Source: Rhizoclosmatium globosum (taxonomy: Eukaryota > Chytridiomycota > Chytridiomycetes > Chytridiales > Chytriomycetaceae). Taken from it: a stretch of DNA of 64,000 nucleotides. The notes beneath the pieces are model-generated. The model was not told the DNA's origin, made no database searches, and was given only the letters and a program-made list of their open reading frames with translations. The translations under genes and the position numbers were made by a program. Location: contig MCGO01000066.1 of NCBI GenBank assembly GCA_002104985.1, positions 178,714-242,713 of the forward strand. The letters run 5' to 3'. This document shows positions 49,378-64,000 of this stretch, piece by piece. Within the stretch, counting starts at the first letter, position 1, and each line of letters begins with the position of its first letter.

Positions 49378-52300
49378 ATGGGTAACTCTCAGTCTAATTT
49401 GGGTAAGGCATTGGACTTGGGTGTTTCTCAGACCACTCACTCACTCTTTACTCCGGCAGTGAAAAAGAGTCCCAAGAAACAGAAGAACGAGATCGCTCGC
49501 AATGACCATTCAACCAACCTTACTCATGGCTCCATGGCGAAGTCGACTGCACTGTCCATAACTGATGAGGACAATGATCCATCGTCGCAATCACATGTTG
49601 CAGGTAAAGTCCGCATGTGACGTTGTGGTCCAACGTTTACCCAGTCACAGCCACCGTCAAAGTCTCTGACAATCAAGAACCTGATGTCGTGTCTCCGGTC
49701 ATCACTCCATCTGTTGTGGATGCTGTCGGGTTGGCCCAACGCCCAAAACCCAATACCACCCCAACACCTTCTGAATTCAGAAGCAGGACTTGTGAGTGCC
49801 ATTGCCAGTACTCATTTACTCATTCGCCGTTGTTAGTGGCCAACTTGGTTGATCCCACGCTCTCAAAAGAACTTGAAACGGAATCGAAGAAGTTGGTCAA
49901 TGCAGTCATCAAGATGATTCAGACATCTGGCAATCAGACTCTCGAAGATTCCGCAAAGAACTCACCAGGAAAAGAGCTCATTGATATGATTGACGCTGCG
50001 GCCAACAATTACTCCGAGTATGAGCCAAAATTGAATGAGGCTTTGGATCAGTTTACTGCCTCAATTCCTGTTGTGAGCGATGTCGCCTCATCGTTGAGCC
50101 AGGGACTCAAGAGTTTGGAGAGTATTGTCACAAACGTTGCTGATGTAAGCCTTTCAAGAAGGTATTTTTTCAAACTGACATGTTTTTCGTTTCAGACTCA
50201 TCCACTCTTGAAAGTGGCTTGGAGTCTCATTAGTGCCGGGTTTAAAGTGGGTGTCTTGTTTCTGTATCCAAACCGCTTTAATACTCTTAACAGATGGTCA
50301 AAAACGCAGCCGATCTAGATAGTAAGTTTGTGGAACTTGTCAGGGCGTTTGACAATACTTCGGGCCATATCCGGATCGCGATGACGGCTGAAGCCGGTGG
50401 AATGTCGGCGGCAGTTACGGATTTTGTTGTACAGGGTATCAACGATTGCATGAAGTGCACGATTCAATTGGTCCAGTTGTGTTTGGAACACGACAATCAA
50501 AACAAGGGTATGTTGAGTTGTGATTCTTGTACTCTTTTTCCTAAAAAACAATGCAGTTGCTCGATTTGTATTTGCGGGATCTGCTATCGACAAATTCAAA
50601 ACAATGAAGGAGTCTCTTGACGTCTCTGCTTCGGAGCTTCGGGAGAAATTGGGCACTTCCAACTTTGTCATTTCAGCAGACATAAGTGCAAAAGTTGATG
50701 TTGGGCTTGCCATTAGTGCAGATACCAGTGGAAAGGTTGATGCCATAAATACAATGGTCACTCAACTCGTCAAATCTAAAAATGAGTCCAAAGAAGGTTT
50801 GTTCGCTTCGTTTGTCTAATTGCTTAACTCATGGGTTTCCCGGAAACAGATCCTCTAAGCTTCATTGGTTATCCTTTCAATGATAGTGTGGCCCTGATCC
50901 AAAAACTTTCAATACAGTCAACTGAAGGGACACGAAAGTGGCTTCTTGACGAAATTCTTGAAAAGTTTTCTTCTGTCGAAGTGTACTGTCTTCGTGGCGA
51001 AGCGGGTGTGGGAAAATCTGTCATTTCGGGATGTCTTGGAAAGCGTTTACATACGCAATTGAAGGCGGCCTTTTTTTGTAAGAGCGGAGATGCCAACAGA
51101 AACAATTTGGCTGCTTTGATTCAAAATGTTGCACATCAGGTGTGTTTGTGGTTTGTTTCTTTCGTTGCTGACTTCCTATTCACCAGTTGGCTCAAGCCAA
51201 CCCTGAATTCTACAATGCTCTTGTTGAAACTCACAAAGTCTTTTTTCAGCAGTTTAAAAGAGAACCCGCTTCTGTGGTTGAGCTATTAGATAACTACATT
51301 GTCATTCCCTTGAGCAAGTGGCCCGAAAACGAACCATGTTTCGTGATTCTCGATGCATTGGATGAACTCTCGTCCAACAGTTCCCTCATCAAAGACATTG
51401 GCACCCTTTTGACTAAATTTTCTGCATCCAAAAAAGTCAAACTCTTTGTCACTACCAGAACTGACAAGGCTAGCATGGAACAAATATCGCCAGATCGTTT
51501 GACGGCAATCATCAGGGACTTTCCTCATGAAAACAAAGATACTCAACATAACTTGGAAGACATCGAATTGTTTGCCGGCAAACGACTCGAATCAACTCTT
51601 GGGAAAAAAGTCACTGATGCCGACATTTCCACACTCGCAAAGTTCTTCCAAGAAAAGTCAAATGGATTGTTCATTTGGGCAGCAATGGCGTTAGACAAAT
51701 TATCCTTGTCGAACACGTACAAGAACATCGAGTGGATTGCAAGCAATAGTACCCAGAGGATGGAGCTCCTCAAAATGGAACTGCAAGAAATTGCCAAGTT
51801 GGGATTGTATGATTTCTACACTTTGGCCTTTGAAAGGACGTATCCTCCCAATGAAGACAAAAAGTATTTCCAAGCGGCAATAGGATTCGTTTTGCATGCC
51901 AAGGTGCCAGTCTCATTGAAGTTGATTGCCACACTAGTGCCTGAATTTGACGGTCTTCCCCATTCAGAAAACCCCTCACCTAAAGAAATATTTGCTGTCA
52001 GAGATTATGTTGAACGCTGTTCGTCGTTGCTCTATAATGATGACCCGATGATAGGCTGAATGGCAAGCTTCACTTTATACACAAAACAGTGCGCGAATAT
52101 CTCTCTGATGAAAAGACATTGTTTTTCATCAATGAACAGTTGGTGTCTGTTCAGATCGCCAAAACATATTTAAAACGTTTTTGTGGTGACAAGTTTCTCT
52201 TCAAAAACATGGCCAACTTGGCCGTTACCGCTTCTGAATCCTACAGTGGGAACACCTTGTCCGAAGAGTTGGTATATGGTGTGCAGTATTGGCACAGACA

Positions 52301-54539
52301 CTTTATCGAGGCTCTCAGAAGCAACTGTGCTATTCAGGATAAAAAAGAACTCATACACTTATTTGTCAAGTTCTGTGAAACAAAACTTGTGTACTACCTG
52401 GAAGCTATTGTTCTGTTGGGCAAATTAAACGATATTCCTCGTCTCGTCGCTGATCTCACTGCATGTCTTCGGGAAATCGGGTTTGAGTCACTTTTTGACA
52501 ACTCACTTTTGGCTGGAAATGAGGTACTCTCGTTACTCAATGACCTTAGGTGTGTGGCCATCAATTTCCGGACCCAGTTGTTGGTGAGCGCACTGCAAGT
52601 TTACAACCATGCCTTAATCGCGGTGCCTCAAGAAACCGTATATTACAGGCTGTATCAGAGTCTTGCAACTGCGCGCATTACTATTGGTGCTGAAAAAGAG
52701 TGGGGTCCATTCACACTTGTTGGCCATTCTGAGAGTGTGTATTCTGTGGCATTCTCGCCTGATGGTAAGACTGTGGTTTCTGGATCAGATGACAGAACAG
52801 TCAAATTGTGGTCTGTGGAAACTGGTGAGTGCATCAAGACCCTTGAAGGGCATTCTGGAGATGTGAACTCAGTGGCATTCTCGCCTGACTCCAAGACTGT
52901 GGTTTCGGGATCTTGGGACAAGACAGTAAAATTGTGGTCTGTAGAAACTGGGGAACTCTTAAAGACCCTTGTTGGGCATTCTGAGGGAGTAAAGTCAGTG
53001 GCATTCTCGCCTGATAGCAAGACTGTGGTTTCTGGATCAGCTGACCGTACAGTCAAATTGTGGTCTGTGGAAACAGGGGAATGTCTCAAGACCCTTGTTG
53101 GGCATTCCGACAGTGTGGATTCAGTGGCATTCTCGCCTGACTCCAAGACTGTGGTTTCTGGATCAGGTGACGAGACAGTCAAATTGTGGTCTGTGGAAAC
53201 TGGGGAACTCTTAAAGACCCTTGTTGGCCATTCTGTGACTGTGTGTTCAGTGGCATTCGCGCCTGACGGCAAGACTGTGGTTTCTGGATCAGGTGACGAG
53301 ACAGTCAAATTATGGTCTGTGGAAACTGGAGAACTCCACAAGACCCTTGTAGGGCATTCTGATGGTGTGCTTTCAGTGGCGTTCTCGCCTGACTCCAAGA
53401 CTGTGGTTTCTGGATCCCTTGACAACACAGTCAAATTGTGGTCTGTGGAAACTGGGCAACTCTCCAAGACCCTTGAAGGGCATTCTGGAGATGTGACTTC
53501 AGTGGCATTCTCGCCTGACTCCAAGACTGTGGTTTCGGGATCTTGGGACAAGACAGTAAAATTGTGGTCTGTAGAAACTGGGGAACTCTTAAAGACCCTT
53601 GAAGGGCATTCTCTCTGGGTGACTTCAGTGGCATTCTCGCCTGACTCCAAGACTGTGGTTTCTGGATCATTGGACAACACAGTCAAATTGTGGTCTGTGG
53701 AAACTGGGGAACTCTTAAAGACCCTTGTTGGCCATTCTGGGACTGTGTGTTCAGTGGCATTCTCGACTGACGGCAAGACTGTGGTTTCTGGATCAGGTGA
53801 CGAGACAGTCAAATTATGGTCTGTGGAAACTGGAGAACTCCACAAGACCCTTGTAGGGCATTCTGATGGTGTGCTTTCAGTGGCGTTCTCGCCTGACTCC
53901 AAGACTGTGGTTTCTGGATCATATGACAAGACAGTGAAATTGTGGTCTGTGGAAACTGGAGAACTCCACAAGACCCTTGAAGGGCATTCTAACTGGGTGA
54001 CTTCAGTGGCATTCTCGCCTGACTCCAAGACTGTGGTTTCTGGATCCCTTGACAGAACAGTCAAATTGTGGTCTGTGGAAACTGGGCAACTCTCCAAGAC
54101 CCTTGAGGGGCATTCTTGGGGTGTGACTTCAGTGGCATTCTCGCCTGACAGCAAGACTGTGGTTTCTGGATCATATGACAAGACAGTGAAATTGTGGTCT
54201 GTGGAAACTGGAGAACTCCACAAGACCCTTGTTGGGCATTCTGAATTGGTGTGGTCAGTGGCATTCTCGCCTGACTCCAAGACTGTGGTTTCTGGATCAG
54301 ATGACAGAACAGTCAAATTGTGGTCTGTGGAAACAGGTGAATGTCTTGAAACACCTGATTGGGATGGAAGTGATCTTAGAGGCACATTCACTCCCTCAGA
54401 GTTAACAACCCGAGATGGTTGGATTTGCCAAGGCAAGACACTTTTGTACAACCTTGACTTAAGAATTGATGGTTATTCTGAGTCATCTGCTGTCTGGATT
54501 GTGGCAAACAATGTTGTTTGCCTCACTCTTAACGAATAG
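49378..54539 (+). CDS. NACHT-WD40 NLR (STAND) protein
   Basis: Eight exons (49378-49603, 49651-49791, 49837-50144, 50196-50246, 50294-50507, 50557-50796, 50850-51139, 51187-54539) give about 1607 residues. The start MGNSQSN carries a possible N-myristoylation signal. Residues 120-380 are helical and resemble the Goodbye/HeLo-like N-terminal domains of fungal NLRs (inference). The NACHT domain has Walker A GEAGVGKS at about 443-450 and Walker B CFVILDALDEL. A winged-helix-like part precedes 13 WD40 repeats of 42 residues and a unique 60-residue tail. Fungal NLRs of this build control heterokaryon incompatibility or antimicrobial defence by oligomerising on ligand binding. One C is missing near 52046 (GACCCGATGATAGG), which breaks the frame between NACHT and WD40 unless it is an assembly error. 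Confidence 0.88.
52712..54349 (+). repeat. 13 tandem 126-bp WD40 repeats
   Basis: Each repeat encodes GHSxxVxSVAFSPDxKTVV (first 19 residues) then SGSxDxTVKLWSVETGExxK and TLx. The backbone is almost invariant at DNA level. Variation concentrates at residues 4, 5, 7, 23, 25 and 38 (for example ES/Y, GD/N, EG/K, LW/T, NW/T; D/W/A/G/L/Y at 23; R/K/E/N at 25). Confidence 0.93.
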
Positions 54540-55964: not shown

Positions 55965-56638
55965 TCCTGTGTTACCGTCCTCCAACAGCGTCCTCCAGGT
56001 TACCGTCCTCCAACAGCGTCCTCCAACAGCGTCCTCCAACAGCGTCCTCCAGGTTACCGTCCTCCAACAGCGTCCTGTGTTACCGTCCTCCAACAGCGTC
56101 CTCCAACAGCGTCCTGTGTTACCGTCCTCTATCAGTGTCCTCTAACAGAGTCCTCCAACAGCGTCCTGTGTTACCGTCCTCCAACAGCGTCCTCCAGGTT
56201 ACTGTCCTCCAACAGCGTCCTCCAACAGCGTCCTGTGTTACCGTCCTCCAACAGCGTCCTCCAGGTTACCGTCCTCCAACAGCGTCCTGTGTTACCGTCC
56301 TCCTACAGCGTCCTCCAACAGCGTCCTCCAGGTTACCGTCCTCCAACAGCGTCCTCCAACAGCGTCCTCCAACAGCGTCCTCCAACAGCGTCCTCCAGGT
56401 TACCGTCCTCCAACAGCGTCCTCCAACAGCGTCCTCCTACAGCGTCCTCCAACAGCGTCCTCCAGGTTACCGTCCTCCAACAGCGTCCTCCAACAGCGTC
56501 CTCCAACAGCGTCCTCCAACAGCGTCCTCCAGGTTACCGTCCTCCAACAGCGTCCTGTGTTACCGTCCTCCTACAGCGTCCTCCAACAGCGTCCTGTGTT
56601 ACCGTCCTCCAACAGCGTCCTCCAGGTTACTGTCCTCT
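55965..56638 (+). repeat. TCCT word array 1
   Basis: About 50 head-to-tail words of 13 or 15 bp: A = TCCTCCAACAGCG, B = TCCTGTGTTACCG, C = TCCTCCAGGTTACCG, with few point variants. In the part that I read word by word, B and C never touch each other; at least one A always separates them. The array ends just inside TCCTCTGATTCTG. Confidence 0.93.
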
Positions 56639-56772: not shown

Positions 56773-59700
56773 CTATACAACTACATTCTGTTTTGCGGAC
56801 GGAAGATAAATTAAACCATTAGTTTTGGCATTATATGGTATTCCTCTTCCATCAATATGATACATTCGCAGGAATTGCATTCTTCTTTCACCAGGCAAAT
56901 TAAGATTAGAACATGCCCAAACTGCATGATTGGGATCAAGGTCACCACATGGCAACACCTCAAATCTTTTCCTTGCTTCAGCAACAAGCTTATTCTTCAA
57001 TGTCTCCTTGGCTGAATTGGCCTCATTTCTGCTACCATAAATAATGATAGATTGAAAAGAACGTAGTTGTTCCAGGAGTAATCCGAAGTACTTTGAATAA
57101 CGTCCCAGTCTTGTTGATCTATTTGGTGGGGACTGAAAAAAGGAAGCCACTTCTTGTTCATCAAAATTGATAAATCTTGCCAACTTGTCGTCATAACATT
57201 TTACCCGATTTCCAAATATTCCCTTTACCAGGTGATAGGGGTAAGCATTTTTGTTGTCAACAATCAGTCTCAGAGCATCAACAGTCAGCATCTTCCGACT
57301 CTTTACTTGCTGCATATTTTCAGGAAACCGAATCATATTTTCAGGCAAATCTTCTATAAGACCATCAAAAAGCATGTCTATCATTTGAGTAACTAGTTCA
57401 TCAACAGTCCGAGCATTTGGTGTTACAAGAATGTCTGTGACCCTTGGCTGAGATTGTATTGTTCTGACAATATCCATAATATGTGCCACCCTATCAGGGG
57501 CAAATGACTGATGCAACACAGATTCAGGATTATTCTTTCCTTTGCTTTTCTTTTTCTTGGAATACTTGACAAGAGCGGCCTTGTCAACAAACTTGGGAAC
57601 CAAACTCTTTGGCAATGGATCTCTGAATTCATCATTCAGAGACTGTGGATTAGCCAAAATCTGAAGCAGGGGAAAGGCTTGATATGGTACACTCCCGAAA
57701 GCATGGACTTGTTGAGTAAAGTAATGGAGAGTGAACAAGTCAAAGTTGGGTGTGTAATAACCTCTTGGCTTTGAAACCAAACAAAGAAACTCTTTTTGGA
57801 TGTAATTTGCTAATTCCATCCAGTATGGCTTTAGTCTAGAATGGCGGGACTGCAAGGCATAAGCAACGTCAGCCAAACTCAAAAGTGCTTGCGATCGAAT
57901 GTCAATGTACTGAATCAAGTCCTTTGTTCTTTCAACAATCAAAAGTGTAGATCTTGCAAGCCGATCAAACTGTTGGACCTTATTTTTAAAGTCCTGCAGG
58001 AATGCCGCAACAGCCCCTTCTTCACCTCTGACTTCACATCGCATCCCAAAACACATATCAACTGCCTTACGCAGATGGTTCTGGAAAGCTACAACTTTTT
58101 TACGAAGAGAATCAGAGTTGTTCATGATTTCCTCAACAGATATGCTGCTGAACCCATGTTTTGCGTCAACATGATCAATGGTCTGATACTTGAAACCAGA
58201 ATAGATTATAACCTTGAAAACACCTTCATAAGCACAATTTTGAGTGGGGACAGCTTTCAATCCTCCAATGTGAACACAATCCAACATTATCTCTCTTTCA
58301 ACAGAAAACCCCAAAGATGTGAGTAAAGCTTCCCAGTTACTGACAGGAGCAAGAGTAGTAATTCCCTCACTAGGATTTTGACTTTCAAACATCATGTTGA
58401 TGGCACCATCAACAACTGTAAATCTAGTTCTTGGAGTTGATGCAATACCTACAGCTGTATTTTTACGTTTATACATTGGATTTCCATCTCTCCATGCAGA
58501 TGGGGGGCCCATATAAATTTCAGATGTGTACAAATCCTTTACACCTTGATGAACACCAATGAACCGAAAATCACCCAATGCCGTCTTCAATTCTGCAATT
58601 CTTGGTATATTTTGTGTATTTAACAATCTCTTGAATTTTTCTGTAAATCCAGCAAGGTATTTTCCTTCAACAGTGACTGAAGGAAATCGAAGTCCAGGAC
58701 GTCCAACCATTGCATTGATTTGAAGCCCATGAGAGTCATTTGAGACACGTTGTAAAGTTGCAAGGGGAAGGATATCAGCAAGTACTGGTCTGATTCCATG
58801 ATCCCAAAGAAGTGTTTGGAATTGAGACAGAGTAAAGTTTTCTGGGCACTTATTGTATGTGATATACAAGCGAAACCTCTCTCCCTCTCCTATTTGAAAA
58901 TTTGGAATGTCTGCAAGATCCACTGGTTCCAAAATAGGTTGGCCACGTGCATCCACATCTCCAGTTGGTTGATCAATCATACAACCAAGCTAAACAGAAG
59001 TTCAGATAAGGTTGTTGAAACAACGTGCTCACCTTTTTGTCCAGAATATACTTGAAATCAGATTTGGGTAATAGCTTATACATTCCCTGGGGAAGTATAT
59101 CTTCCAAGTTTCTAGTAACTGTGATATCTGAGTCAATATCACAAGAGTAGTCAGATATGAGCTGTGCATGCAGTGCAGTGTTTCCCCATTTAACAATATG
59201 AGGAATCTTTCCAGTCACTAGCTCAATAAACTTTTTCATTTTAGGAGTCTGAGCATTAATAGAAATATCAATTTTTGATTTATCAGTTGTAGGCTTCAAG
59301 CCATGCCTTGTAAACATTTGCTTATGACTGTTGACAGCAGTTTCAAAGGACACAGAAGGGATTTGAGCTTGAGGAATGGATTCAACCAAGTTAACTCTGG
59401 CCTGCTGTCTCCACTCCATATTGGGATGGAGGGAATCAATCAATGTACCAATATTCGTAAGAATATGAGACTCCCACATTTCACTAATATCACTCTTTAG
59501 GAGAAGGTGTAAGCTTGCCAGCCATAGACTCTGAGTCTCATAGTTTCGGAATGAAAGAATGTCTTGGATGCAAAATATTTTAGAAGTATTAAGCCGGTAG
59601 GCTGTAAAAAAGTTCAATTAATATTGAGAATGTTCAACTGAAAACTTCACTGTTGGTGTCCTGCGCAGCATCATATACAAACAACAGGTCATCATCATCT

Positions 59701-59884: not shown

Positions 59885-60258
59885 GCGTCCTCTAATACCG
59901 TCCTCTAATACCGTCCTCTAATACCGTCCTCCAACAGCGTCCTGTGTTGCTGTCCTCCAACAGCGTCCTCCGACAGCGTCCTGTTTTACCGTTCTCCGAC
60001 AGCGTCCTGTGTTACCGTCCTCCAACAGCGTCCTCTAGTTACCGTCCTTCAACAGCGTCCTGTGTTACCGTCCTCCAACAGCGTCCTGTGTTACCGTCCT
60101 CCAACAGCGTCCTCCAACAGCGTCCTCCAACAGCGTCCTGTTTTACTGTTCTCCGACAGCGTCCTGTGTTACCGTCCTCTAACAGCGTCCTGTGTTACCG
60201 TCCTCCGACAGCGTCCTGTGTTACTGTCCTTCAACAGCGTCCTGTGTTACAGTCCTCT
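59885..60258 (+). repeat. TCCT word array 2
   Basis: About 28 words, same orientation as array 1. It opens with three TCCTCTAATACCG variants, then mixes TCCTCCAACAGCG, TCCTCCGACAGCG and TCCTGTGTTACCG. It has more variants than array 1 and only one 14-bp C-like word (TCCTCTAGTTACCG). Confidence 0.92.
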
Positions 60259-60677
60259 GAAAGCACCCTCCAAAAACAACAAAAAGAAACTGTGGTGTAA
60301 ACCTAAGTTGTCTTCTTCTTTAAGCCTGATGTCTATCTCTCATAAAACCAATCTCACATCAATGTTTAGCAAAACCAAGCTTCCAAAAAAATAGACTCAG
60401 ACTTTGTGGAAAATATGGCATAATTTTGATTAAATTTCATCCAATGCATTTAGGGGTAATAGTTTAATATTCTTTTTCTGCAAAGATGGAGGTTTTTATT
60501 GTAGTGTACCTAAAACAATTTGAAGTAATTATATCTATTAATGCATTCTTTGTTTTTGGGTCCTGATTTTCTCTTTTTGGAAAAGGCGTCTCCAATTTAT
60601 TGTCATCGGCTGCCTCAGCAGAGCTGCCCTCAATCAAGGAACTCTGGAAGTGGATCTATAGTAAGTTCCTCCTGTTT
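60259..60677. other. AT-rich stretch without a supported gene
   Basis: About 420 bp between array 2 and the minisatellite gene. Short open frames only, no splice-supported model and no repeat seen. Confidence 0.4.
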
Positions 60678-61415
60678 CTATGCACATTCCCTTGAGCTGT
60701 TGGCAACATCTTTGCCTTCTTGCTTGTTGTCCAACTGAGGATGGCTCTCTTCCTGTACTGTACATAGGGAGCCTTCTCTGAACTCATCCAAGGCTGCACT
60801 GTGCATGCTTTGGAAGGGTTTGCTGACAGCATGTAGAGAAGGTAAAGAGGCAGTGTTTCTTCTCAGCTTGTCCAACTGAGGATGGCTCTCTTCCTGTACT
60901 GTACATAGGGAGCCTTCTCTGAACTCATCCAAGGCTGCACTGTGCATGCTTTGGAAGGGTTTGCTGACAGCATGTAGAGAAGGTAAAGAGGCAGTGTTTC
61001 TTCTCAGGTTGTCCAACTGAGGATGGCTCTCTTCCTGTACTGTACATAGGGAGCCTTCTCTGAACTCATCCAAGGCTGCACTGTGCATGCTTTGGAAGGG
61101 TTTGCTGACAGCATGTAGAGAAGGTAAAGAGGCAGTGTTTCTTCTCAGCTTGTCCAACTGAGGATGGCTCTCTTCCTGTACTGTACATAGGGAGCCTTCT
61201 TTGAACTCATCCAAGGCTGCACTGTGCATGCTTTGGAAGGGTTTGCTGACAGCATGTAGAGAAGGTAAAGAGGCAGTGTTTCTTCTCAGCTTGTCCAACT
61301 GAGGATGGCTCTCTTCCTGTACTGTACATAGGGAGCCTTCTCTGAACTCATCCAAGGCTGCACTGTGCATGCTTTGGAAGGGTTTGACATGATGTAGCTC
61401 TTGTCCAAAGGGCAT
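60678..61415 (-). CDS. protein made of 47-residue tandem repeats
   Basis: 245 residues from the ATG at 61415, in one open frame. After a short leader (MPFGQELHHV) come five copies of a unit KPFQSMHSAALDEF followed by REGSLCTVQEESHPQLD and KLRRNTASLPSLHAVS; the fifth is cut and a unique NKQEGKDVANSS.. end follows. Each unit keeps one Cys. The frame is maintained because the repeat is 141 bp. It is divergent to the dioxygenase gene, 96 bp away. Coding status is plausible but rests on the open frame alone. Confidence 0.5.
   Translation of the reverse strand: MPFGQELHHVKPFQSMHSAALDEFREGSLCTVQEESHPQLDKLRRNTASLPSLHAVSKPFQSMHSAALDEFKEGSLCTVQEESHPQLDKLRRNTASLPSLHAVSKPFQSMHSAALDEFREGSLCTVQEESHPQLDNLRRNTASLPSLHAVSKPFQSMHSAALDEFREGSLCTVQEESHPQLDKLRRNTASLPSLHAVSKPFQSMHSAALDEFREGSLCTVQEESHPQLDNKQEGKDVANSSRECA
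60727..61390 (-). repeat. 141-bp coding minisatellite, about 4.7 copies
   Basis: Units are nearly identical at DNA level; the differences seen are C or G in CTCAG(C/G)TTGTCC and C or T in CTTCT(C/T)TGAACTC. Such homogeneity indicates recent amplification or gene conversion. Confidence 0.93.
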
Positions 61416-61511: not shown

Positions 61512-63213
61512 ATGCCAAAGGTAACGCGCCTTTCAAAGCTGGTTACCTCCAAGGCCAGTCACAAGAAAATGCAGAATATTGATGCCCAGGATTCTATCAA
61601 ATCTACACAGCTAGTATGGTTATCTCTTACTTGTCTTCTTGTCTCCTGTTCTGCATTTTGACCTATCTTTTCTTTTAAGACAAGCAATCTGTTTCAAGTT
61701 TATTCTCAAAGTGTGCCTTGTTCCTTGTCTGGCCCTTGTCCAACAACTCTAGGCAAATTTTCTGAAAATTTTGCCTCTGTTACAGATAAGGTATGAAAAG
61801 AACCCTAAAGTCTTGTTGTTGTTAAGGCAAATTATTACAGTGTGATTGCAGCAGTCCTTCCAAACAAGCACATACACCTGATTCAGACAGTGAGGAAGAA
61901 GAAGATTTTTCTGATGACACTTTAGAAGAAGAGGTGTCTCCTTTTGTTTGGTCTTATGATTGTAAGTTTTAAATTTTTGGGGTCCCTTGCTTTGATTAAT
62001 TTTTTTGGAAAAATGAGATATGATTCCTGTCTCTGAATGGACAGGTGCCCATCCTTTAAAGGATTGTAAAACACCAGAGTACCTTGAGAACAATGCTTCT
62101 TTTCCTCCTTCTCAAAAGCCTTGCCCAGAACGTAGGAAAACCCACAAAAACTTGGTCCAAACTATCGTAAAGTATAAGGTGTTTTCTTCAAACTGCACAC
62201 TTGCAGACATCAAAAGACGCAAGCTCCTCATTGGTCAGAAACCACCCCCTTTTGTGAATGACATTGCCAACTATATTGATCTGTCTGAAGGTGGAAATGT
62301 GTTCACCACAGATGGCCATTTACTTCTCTCTGTTATGCCATCTTTTCTGGACCATGTCTACTACACAAAAGATTCTGCCGCTCAAACCTATGGCAGAGGT
62401 TTTTTTCAGCTGGGGAATCAAGTATATCATGCTGAATCTGTGGCCCTTGGTGCTCTTATAGCATTAGCAGGATCGTTTAAGAAGCTCCCCCAGCCCAATG
62501 ACATTCGCCATGATGGATATGCCCGTTTTGGTGGAGTGCTTCATTTAGGCTTGCGCTTTCCTCGTGGCCACTATTTTGCAGAAAAATATGATGGTGGTAT
62601 TGTTCCTTCTGCCGATTGTTCAAGTTCTTATTCTAGAAAAGCATACAGTGCTTATCAAAGGAGTATGGCTCCCATTCAGCAAGCAATTGGTCTCTTATAC
62701 TCACTTCTGGCACCAAAGGCCTATGAACGGGACCAAAAAATTGTAAATTTTTACTCAAGAGCCACAGGCCTCATTGAAGCAATCTCATGCAGCCGCACAA
62801 CAAAACTCATGGTTGCCATTCCAATCTGTGACAATGTAACCGTTCATTTTGATGGAAAGGATGATGGGCATAATGATACGTTAGCCCCAATGACTGTATT
62901 TGGCTATTTTGAAGGGGGGTGGTTGGTCTTCCCTGGTCTAATGGTCAAGGTGAAATATGTTTCTGGGACATATGTGCTCACCAGACCTCACTTTTTGGAA
63001 CATTGTATCACAGAAATCACAGGTCCTAAAATGTTTGATGTAAATCATCCAATAGTCCAGCTATTTCACTCCCGTAATCAATCAAGAGACAAATGGATCA
63101 AAAATTACTGGACCATGACTGAAACAGAACTAAAAGAAAAAAGGTCTTCGGTTTGGCCTTGTTCACTACAACGAGAAGTTAGCAGCTACTCATGCAACCA
63201 AAAAATAAAATGA
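61512..63213 (+). CDS. 2-oxoglutarate/Fe(II) dioxygenase, TET/JBP-like
   Basis: Exons 61512-61613, 61680-61790, 61841-61961 and 62045-63213 give 500 residues. The N-terminus is basic (MPKVTRLSKLVTSKASHKK), then acidic (DSDSEEEEDFSDDTLEEE). The C-terminal domain has the double-stranded beta-helix pattern: H379-F-D381 in VHFDGKDDGHND, then VFGYFEGGWLVFPGL, and the distal His431 in RPHFLEHC about 50 residues on, with a Lys ten residues later as a 2-oxoglutarate ligand candidate. This order (HxD, G.FEGG..P.L, LEH) is that of the fungal 2OGFeDO group, which includes transposon-linked TET/JBP enzymes that oxidise methylated DNA bases. Substrate here is inferred. The first three exons are supported by splice signals and open frames only. 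Confidence 0.7.
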
Positions 63214-63280: not shown

Positions 63281-63661
63281 TCCTCCTATTTTACTGTCCT
63301 CCAACAATGTCCTCCAACAGCGTCCTCCAGGTTACCGTCCTCCAACAGCGTCCTCCTGTGTTACCGTCCTCCAACAGCGTCCTCCTGGGTTACCGTCCTC
63401 CAACAGCGTCCTGTGTTACCGTCCTCCTACAGCGTCCTGTGTTACCGTCCTCCAACAGCGTCCTGTGTTACCGTCCTCTAACAGCGTCCTGTGTTACCGT
63501 CCTCCAACAGCGTCCTCCAACAGCGTCCTGTGTTACCGTCCTCCAACAGCGTCCTCCAACAGCGTCCTCCAACAGCGTCCTGTGTTACCGTCCTCCAACA
63601 GCGTCTTGTGTTACCGTCCTCCAACAGCGTCCTCCAACAGCAACCGATGCTACTGTCCTTT
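63281..63661 (+). repeat. TCCT word array 3
   Basis: About 28 words in the same orientation as arrays 1 and 2, mixing TCCTCCAACAGCG, TCCTGTGTTACCG and rarer forms such as TCCTCCTGTGTTACCG and TCCTCCTGGGTTACCG. It ends about 110 bp upstream of the H3-like gene's ATG. Confidence 0.92.
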
Positions 63662-63771: not shown

Positions 63772-64000
63772 ATGGCAAGAACCGCACAGACTGCAAGACG
63801 GAGCACTGGAGGCAAAGCTCCAAGAAAGAGGATTGAAACAAAAGCAATCAAAACAGCAGCAAAGAAGCGTGGCCCAAGGAATCCTGGAGACTCTGCAGTC
63901 ACAGGACCTCGGGGAGATATCATATCTCAAATAGTGGGTATTGCAGGGTCTGACAGCCAAGGATCCAGCTCGGTTCATCAAGGATCTATTACAGTTGCTC
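63772..64000 (+). CDS. protein with histone H3-tail-like N-terminus, cut by window end
   Basis: The ATG at 63772 opens a frame of 76 codons that runs off the window. After Met the sequence reads ARTAQTARRSTGGKAPRK, then RIETKA. Aligned to canonical H3 residues 1-24 it is identical at 19 positions; K4 is Ala, K9 is Arg, and 19-21 are RIE in place of QLA. K14, K18, K23, S10 and T3 are kept. From residue 25 on the similarity fades: the next 50 residues (ending SVHQGSITVA) are G/S-rich and show nothing of the H3 histone fold. It sits after word array 3 inside the element, so it is probably element-encoded. A host H3 variant with an unusual intron is a less likely alternative. Confidence 0.75.
   Translation, partial: MARTAQTARRSTGGKAPRKRIETKAIKTAAKKRGPRNPGDSAVTGPRGDIISQIVGIAGSDSQGSSSVHQGSITVA

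What the first reader, a model, noticed from the sequence alone, without database searches (positions are those of the whole stretch)
63772..64000. Element-encoded histone H3 tail mimic lacking K4 and K9
The sequence directly shows an ATG followed by ARTAQTARRSTGGKAPRK. H3 starts ARTKQTARKSTGGKAPRK. Nineteen of the first 24 positions agree, and the two differences in the first 18 residues fall exactly on K4 and K9, the residues whose methylation marks active and silent chromatin. K4A and K9R would keep reader and writer contacts but block methylation, as expected of a decoy that evades or sequesters silencing machinery. The following residues are not a histone fold. I know of no transposon-encoded H3 tail of this kind.
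Basis: partly seen in the sequence, partly recalled or inferred. Interest (0 to 1): 0.92.

Follow-up and report, generated by a model that had tools for sequence, protein, structure and literature searches.

The report
Fungal subtelomeric histone H3 tail mimic
A chytrid fungus carries, near several chromosome ends, repeated copies of a gene for a non-histone protein whose first 18 residues copy the tail of histone H3 but lack its key lysine 4, and a related fungus has kept this mimic too, which suggests a way of engaging the proteins that read chromatin.

Summary
The window lies in a 56.9-Mb genome, inferred to be the chytrid Rhizoclosmatium globosum. The contig ends inside the gene, but nine other near-identical copies exist; six read through as a 360-aa spliced protein. 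Mature residues 1-18 match H3 at 16 of 18 (K4A, K9R). No histone fold was found behind it.

Two Obelidium mucronatum proteins share the body (45% and 43% identity) and also begin with an H3 tail: ARTRQTAGKSTGGKTPKK and ARTPQTASRSTGGHAPKR. K4 is lost in all three, three different ways; K9 is kept in one. Eleven positions (A1 R2 T3 Q5 T6 A7 S10 T11 G12 G13 P16) are invariant, whereas the linker behind is not. Codons agree with host H3 no more than by chance. So the tail looks like an old motif under amino-acid constraint.

Copies lie near contig ends; three of the eight other contigs end in TTAGGG arrays. Six of ten have a TET/JBP-like ORF just upstream. Relatives elsewhere have such a neighbour but no tail. 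No transposase was identified.

Best reading: a permanently K4-unmethylated H3-tail mimic for host H3-tail readers. A K9-methyltransferase decoy fits poorly. Binding, expression and the C-terminal fold are untested.

The parts
63772..63999 (+). 5' part (76 of 360 codons) of the H3-tail-mimic gene; cut by the contig end
   Evidence: copies that read through 360 aa in C35, C246 (two), C377, C388, C360
63775..63828 (+). codons for mature residues 1-18, the H3-tail mimic ARTAQTARRSTGGKAPRK
   Evidence: 16/18 identical to H3; 17 residues incl. Met shared with host H3 but only 4-6 codons identical, 5.42 expected with uniform synonymous choice
63296..63641 (.). 13-bp minisatellite GTCCTCCAACAGC between the dioxygenase-like ORF and the mimic gene
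   Evidence: similar arrays at 55976-56624 and 59886-60264
62020..63213 (+). TET/JBP-like 2-oxoglutarate dioxygenase ORF (this copy is frame-shifted after residue 374 relative to the C388 copy)
   Evidence: Pfam Tet_JBP E 0.015 here and 0.0093 in the C360 copy, 15-16 bits against a cut-off of 34.9; HxD and distal H align with relatives that score 2.7e-8 and 1.2e-9; shift
60727..61386 (.). 141-bp tandem repeat array (4.7 copies), open on the minus strand (60678-61415)
   Evidence: present in the C360, C179 and C388 stretches, not found in the C246 stretch
56773..58980 (-). ORF-A, 735 aa; repeated subtelomeric gene of unknown function
   Evidence: no Pfam, NCBIfam, PHROGs or PADLOC match; one PDB hit at E 0.17 only; copies
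58973..59617 (-). 214-aa ORF immediately upstream of ORF-A, probably its first exon
   Evidence: a relative (48-100% identity) adjoins 7 of the 8 ORF-A loci found in the five stretches

Best explanation
The gene encodes a non-histone protein with a flexible N-terminal arm that imitates the tail of histone H3. Removal of the first Met (expected because Ala follows) would expose A1-R2-T3, the end that H3-tail readers grip. Because K4 is replaced (A, R or P), the arm can never be methylated there and would behave as a permanent 'H3K4me0' tail. It most likely docks on one or more host H3-tail readers that need the free A1-R2 end and tolerate an unmethylated position 4 (PHD or ADD type, or an LSD1-type pocket). 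It would thereby either titrate them or bring the conserved C-terminal domain, and perhaps the neighbouring TET/JBP-like enzyme, into chromatin-regulating complexes, so keeping subtelomeric copies expressed. Shown: the tail, its conservation in two genera, loss of K4 in all three homologues, the absence of a recognisable histone fold, multiple copies near contig ends (some with telomere repeats), the dioxygenase-like neighbour. Inferred: Met removal, nuclear site, reader binding, anti-silencing purpose.
For: Three homologues from two genera share the tail. 11 of 18 tail positions are identical in all three and in H3; by alignment columns three-way identity is 11/18 in the tail, 2/19 in the linker (one-sided Fisher p 0.0016) and 114/322 in the body (p 0.027). 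In P0004 the tail is kept although the body starts about 117 residues later than in P0001, as for an independent docking motif. K4 is replaced in 3 of 3 by three different residues. Against host H3, 17 shared residues have only 4-6 shared codons, 5.42 expected under uniform synonymous choice, so the residues, not a recent copy, are preserved. Host H3 starts canonically at 10 places. Six of 10 copies read through 360 aa. A TET/JBP-like ORF lies within 1.5 kb upstream in 6 of 10 copies, and relatives without the tail at C101/C301 and C110 also adjoin such an ORF. Contigs C388, C360 and C371 end in TTAGGG arrays: 3 of the 8 contigs other than C384.
Against: No expression, localisation or binding evidence. 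Only three tailed proteins (one from this genome) were found in about 5.8 billion (the search misses distant relatives), so the constraint rests on few sequences. One intact copy (C360) reads MKRT, which would spoil the H3-like end. R. globosum is reported to have very low 5mC and low 6mA (PMC8298701, passages), so the substrate of the dioxygenase-like neighbour is unclear; that ORF is below the Pfam cut-off and has Lys or a gap where TET enzymes have the 2OG-binding Arg. Four of ten copies lack it within 1.5 kb, including both C246 copies. No host reader was searched for. Five of the eight other contig ends, and the C384 end, show no telomere array, so assembly breaks at repeats may explain part of the end bias.
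Confidence: 0.42

Rival explanations
1. Phospho-acceptor mimic: the arm is a substrate or pseudo-ligand for H3-tail kinases and their readers (Haspin, Aurora or VRK type; BIR-type readers of A1-R2-T3ph), linking subtelomeric genes to mitotic chromosome machinery.
For: All four hydroxyl residues of H3 1-18 (T3, T6, S10, T11) are kept in 12 of 12 cells of the three homologues, lysines in 5 of 12 (Fisher p 0.005, post hoc). The unrelated C269 ORF also keeps a hydroxyl at all four sites.
Against: Neutral residues Q5, A7, G12, G13, P16 are equally invariant, so hydroxyls are not singled out; basic residues next to the acceptors, which H3 kinases usually prefer (recalled), are relaxed at 4 and 8; kinases and readers were not searched for.
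Confidence: 0.18
2. One reading: K4A and K9R make the tail an inhibitor of the H3K4 and H3K9 methyltransferases that would silence the element.
For: K4 replaced in 3 of 3 homologues; K9 to R in 2 of 3 and in the C269 ORF.
Against: P0003 keeps K9; R8 is G or S in both Obelidium proteins. K-to-A/R/P is not the known trapping change (K-to-M, recalled). A search for Pre-SET domains found none, but its controls rang nowhere, so it is uninformative.
Confidence: 0.1
3. The tail is simply a basic arm for nuclear import or DNA binding, and the likeness to H3 is incidental.
For: Positive charge is kept in all three at positions 9, 17 and 18.
Against: The non-basic scaffold is what is frozen: 10 of 11 non-basic positions are invariant, against 1 of 7 basic ones (Fisher p 0.002, post hoc).
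Confidence: 0.12
4. Cis substrate: the C-terminal domain is a cysteine peptidase that clips H3, and its own N-terminus is an auto-inhibitory or self-cleaved H3-like substrate.
For: In the five aligned relatives H220, N266-G-x-Q269, D274-C275 and Y277 are invariant, the residue order and Q-C spacing of Ulp1-like peptidases (recalled).
Against: No Pfam or NCBIfam peptidase match passes a cut-off; a profile comparison with host Peptidase_C48 sequences gave no support; a weak YopT-type match of P0003 (E 0.13) would imply a different catalytic order; relatives without the tail keep the same domain.
Confidence: 0.12
5. Relic of an H3 exon captured by chance, with no present function.
For: 2 of 10 copies are frame-shifted in exon 1 and one in exon 2.
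Against: Tail kept in two genera (11 of 18 positions in all three) while codons are randomised against host H3 and the adjacent linker is not conserved.
Confidence: 0.06

Closest known systems
H3 N-terminal mimicry proteins (Chen et al. 2021 Biochem J, PMC8166343; not held; content recalled; seen only in the reference lists of PMC10208167, PMC10182654 and PMC13361950)
   Same: Non-histone proteins whose processed N-terminus imitates the start of H3 and is read by PHD-type domains (recalled)
   Different: Those keep a methylatable lysine at position 4 and only a few H3 residues (recalled); here the likeness spans 18 residues and K4 is lost in all three homologues
Viral H3-tail mimics: influenza NS1 (ARSK), SARS-CoV-2 ORF8 (ARKS), HDV S-HDAg (PMC10208167, passages)
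   Same: A selfish or foreign protein carries an H3-tail-like motif to engage chromatin factors
   Different: Short motifs that keep the lysine; here an N-terminal 18-residue copy in a fungal genome
PAF15 (Pfam PF15715, PCNA-associated factor histone like domain)
   Same: H3-like N-terminus; weak match of ORF residues 1-45 (E 0.38, 12 bits against 23.4)
   Different: Below the cut-off, and no hit with the full 360-aa protein
TET/JBP-encoding DNA transposons of fungi (Kojima 2025, PMC12730594; abstract, section 4.2 and term passages seen)
   Same: Repeated loci that encode a TET/JBP dioxygenase, proposed there to counter silencing
   Different: The words Rhizoclosmatium, Obelidium and Chytridiomycota do not occur in its main text; no transposase identified here; this neighbour scores below the Pfam cut-off
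Canonical histone H3 of the same genome
   Same: First 18 residues 16/18 identical
   Different: No histone fold found; codons no closer than chance; multi-copy near contig ends

Membership tests
Histone H3 or H3 variant | histone fold after the tail | tested here: not met
   No Pfam match in the 360-aa protein or its 209-aa first exon; no copy of this gene among the 37 PF00125 hits of the genome
Histone H3 or H3 variant | H3 N-terminal tail sequence | tested here: met
   16/18, 14/18 and 12/18 identical to H3 in the three homologues
H3 N-terminal mimics read by PHD fingers | A-R start exposed by Met removal | tested here: inconclusive
   A1-R2 encoded in 9 of 10 copies and both Obelidium proteins; Met removal inferred only
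H3 N-terminal mimics read by PHD fingers | methylatable lysine at position 4 (recalled criterion) | tested here: not met
   A, R, P in the three homologues
H3 N-terminal mimics read by PHD fingers | binding to a reader domain | not testable with these tools
   needs a binding assay
TET/JBP dioxygenase (neighbour ORF) | Pfam Tet_JBP above cut-off | tested here: not met
   E 0.009-0.015, 15-16 bits against 34.9; the relative in L041 passes with 38 bits
TET/JBP dioxygenase (neighbour ORF) | HxD...H iron site and 2OG-binding Arg (recalled motif) | tested here: inconclusive
   HxD and H align with the relatives; the Arg position is Lys or gapped
Ulp1/clan CE cysteine peptidase (C-terminal domain) | profile match or fold | tested here: inconclusive
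   No profile match, hhalign without support but with few sequences, structure prediction switched off
DNA transposon | transposase and element ends | tested here: inconclusive
   No transposase among the neighbours scanned with Pfam; minisatellites lie between genes and gene content differs between copies; element ends were not mapped
Viral gene | relatives in virus contigs | tested here: not met
   No relative of the mimic or of ORF-A in IMG/VR by tblastn

The most novel reading that the evidence does not exclude
Chytrid chromosome ends carry a selfish two-gene epigenetic cassette: a TET/JBP-like dioxygenase acting on DNA and a K4-less H3-tail protein acting on histone readers, together keeping the cassette out of silent chromatin. 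The tail was added to a pre-existing module (relatives without the tail exist), and a second, unrelated protein in the same genome (C269) may have gained a similar K4T, K9R tail independently.
Probability: 0.2. Interest if true: 0.9.

Novelty: new variant of a known kind. Interest (0 to 1): 0.76.

Why it matters
Histone mimicry is described mostly as short motifs in viral proteins (PMC10208167, passages). A nearly complete H3 tail kept on a non-histone fungal protein, without K4 in all three homologues, is a natural test of which H3 residues readers need and of whether subtelomeric or mobile genes imitate an unmethylated H3 tail to control silencing. R. globosum JEL800 is described as a promising laboratory model with a published transcriptome atlas (PMC8887899, abstract start and passages), so the question can be tested.

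Tried and rejected
Host H3 variant or pseudogene: rejected, no histone fold found and codons no closer than chance. Viral origin: no relatives in IMG/VR for the mimic or ORF-A; a DNA-pattern scan gave 93 stretches; all 93 were examined, the best shares 10 of 19 positions with the H3 start and none has STGG in its first 20 residues. Peptidase_C48 membership: host C48 hits exist (21 matches), but a profile comparison with four of them gave no support. Other weak Pfam hits of the Obelidium proteins (XTBD E 0.17, Nop14 E 0.007 over the charged insertion) were taken as chance. A PDB search with the profile of the whole family reached H3 only at E 0.18 or worse, because most rows lack the tail. Further tail-like starts: of five one-mismatch hits, C24 lies in a frame without an ORF of 40 aa and C224/C382 start a 46-aa ORF beside a transporter-like frame; C40 and C335 were not fetched; C269 is kept as a noticed item. 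MAFFT splits the P0004 tail; the ungapped N-terminal comparison in the same call gives the same count, 11 of 18. In one search the L011 row is meaningless (other strand) and was dropped; L001 and L002 gave no H3 start. The Fisher tests are post hoc on three related sequences and treat positions as independent.

Literature: nine searches of the open-licence PMC library. Their capped listings (10 to 25 rows each) showed no report of an H3-tail protein of this kind in chytrids or transposons. Iyer et al. 2014 on fungal TET/JBP is recalled, not read.

Full report
1. The observation. The ORF begins at 63772 (+) and runs open to the window end. The window is G000:C384:178714-242713 and the contig stops at the same base, so this copy is cut after 76 codons. 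Mature residues 1-18 are 16/18 identical to H3, with K4A and K9R; the likeness fades after residue 18 (5 of 16 in 19-34). PDB chains of H3 are the best sequence matches (E 3.4e-5, residues 1-34).

2. The whole gene. Searching the same genome gives ten copies: the window's, eight others identical over the 76 residues, and one (C360) that reads MKRT instead of MART. The database protein P0001 (360 aa) is the spliced full form: exon 1 codes for about 208 residues, a 35-bp GT...AG intron follows, and exon 2 ends the protein. Six of ten copies read through 360 aa (C35, C246 twice, C377, C388, C360); C62 and C371 are frame-shifted in exon 1, C179 in exon 2, C384 is truncated. No Pfam family is recognised in the full protein.

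3. The host. A relative without the tail, P0002, is listed as Rhizoclosmatium globosum BCR33DRAFT_768282 on a 419,223-bp contig. Contig C301 of G000 has that length and carries the same protein. I infer that the genome is R. globosum (Chytridiales, Chytriomycetaceae).

4. Homologues. Searches of about 5.8 billion proteins found two further tailed proteins, both from Obelidium mucronatum of the same family: P0003 (366 aa, 45% identity over the full length) and P0004 (476 aa, 43% over 319 residues of the body, plus the tail as a separate match). Tails: R. globosum ARTAQTARRSTGGKAPRK; P0003 ARTRQTAGKSTGGKTPKK; P0004 ARTPQTASRSTGGHAPKR. Changes from H3 are K4A, K9R; K4R, R8G, A15T, R17K; and K4P, R8S, K9R, K14H, R17K, K18R. 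K4 is the only position changed in all three, each time to a different residue. Invariant are A1 R2 T3 Q5 T6 A7 S10 T11 G12 G13 P16.

5. Is it selected? Three-way identity is 11/18 in the tail, 2/19 in the following linker and 114/322 in the body (one-sided Fisher, tail against linker p 0.0016, tail against body p 0.027). In P0004 a long charged insertion separates tail and body, yet the tail is kept. Against the host's own H3 genes 17 residues (Met included) agree but only 4-6 codons, where 5.42 would agree under uniform synonymous choice. So the tail is not a recent H3 copy, and a drifting relic is unlikely. Host H3 starts with the canonical MARTKQTARKSTGGKAPRK at ten places.

6. What varies. 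Of 7 basic positions 6 vary; of 11 others one varies (p 0.002). All four Ser/Thr positions are kept (12/12 cells) while lysines are kept in 5/12 (p 0.005). These tests are post hoc, on three related sequences. They speak against a plain basic arm and against a lysine-centred decoy, and leave two live ideas: docking on readers of an unmethylated H3 tail, and a phospho-acceptor mimic.

7. Location. All ten copies lie 0.2 to 17.2 kb from a contig end and point towards it. Contigs C388 and C360 end in TTAGGG arrays, as does C371. The C179, C377, C62, C246 and C35 ends do not (C246 has a single TTAGGG), nor does the C384 end; assembly breaks at repeats may explain these. Going towards the end, the order in the window, C360, C179 and C388 is (-) ORF-A, a 141-bp repeat, (+) dioxygenase-like ORF, (+) mimic, with minisatellites of GTCCTCCAACAGC between genes in the window. 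In the C246 stretch the dioxygenase-like ORF and the 141-bp repeat are not found and the mimic is doubled.

8. Neighbour. The ORF at 62020-63213 is a distant TET/JBP-like dioxygenase: sub-threshold in Pfam, but with HxD...H aligning to ORFs at C101 and C110 that score 2.7e-8 and 1.2e-9. Those ORFs also stand next to relatives of the mimic's body that lack the tail. The dioxygenase-plus-body pair is thus wider than the tail. A TET/JBP-like ORF was found within 1.5 kb upstream in 6 of 10 mimic copies. R. globosum is reported to have very low 5mC and low 6mA (PMC8298701, passages), though C5-methyltransferase domains are present in the genome (25 matches).

9. C-terminal domain. Invariant H220, N266-G-x-Q269, D274-C275, Y277 recall a Ulp1-like peptidase order (recalled), but profile tests did not support it, and a weak YopT-type hit (E 0.13) would imply another order.

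10. Mechanism. I favour a permanent H3K4me0-like tail used to tether or titrate host H3-tail readers (0.42). Rivals and tests are listed. A K9-methyltransferase decoy fits less well because R8 and K9 are not treated consistently among the homologues.

11. Novelty. Histone mimicry is known (PMC10208167, passages), and H3 N-terminal mimics with a lysine 4 are described (Chen et al. 2021, recalled; not held). The listings of nine literature searches showed nothing like an 18-residue, K4-less H3 tail on a repeated fungal gene. I call it a new variant of a known kind.

Noticed in passing
L047:1504-2274 (G000:C269:4703-5470): An ORF of 256 aa, single-copy and unrelated to the mimic, begins MARTTQTARRTTNGPEF, a second H3-like start (9/18; K4T, K9R, S10T) in the same genome; independent mimicry or chance.
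   Followed up: partly
56773-59617 (-): ORF-A (735 aa plus a 214-aa upstream ORF), an orphan gene with relatives at 97%, 54% and 28-29% identity in other contig-end stretches, no known domain.
   Followed up: partly
51187-54539 (+): NPHP3_N/NACHT-like ORF followed by a protein with 13 WD40 stretches, the look of fungal NLR-like proteins (recalled).
   Followed up: no
522-25954: Twelve ORFs of 286-373 aa that look alike and multi-pass membrane by eye; no family search made.
   Followed up: no
L031:1850-3050 and L035:5875-9080: Other ORFs between the mimic and the telomere: a stretch that looks Gln-rich by eye, and ORFs with Cys-rich parts without Pfam match, one of which recurs on C388.
   Followed up: no
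L019:1501 (G000:C360:341252): One otherwise intact copy has MKRT instead of MART by a two-base change, which should keep the initiator Met and spoil the H3-like end.
   Followed up: partly
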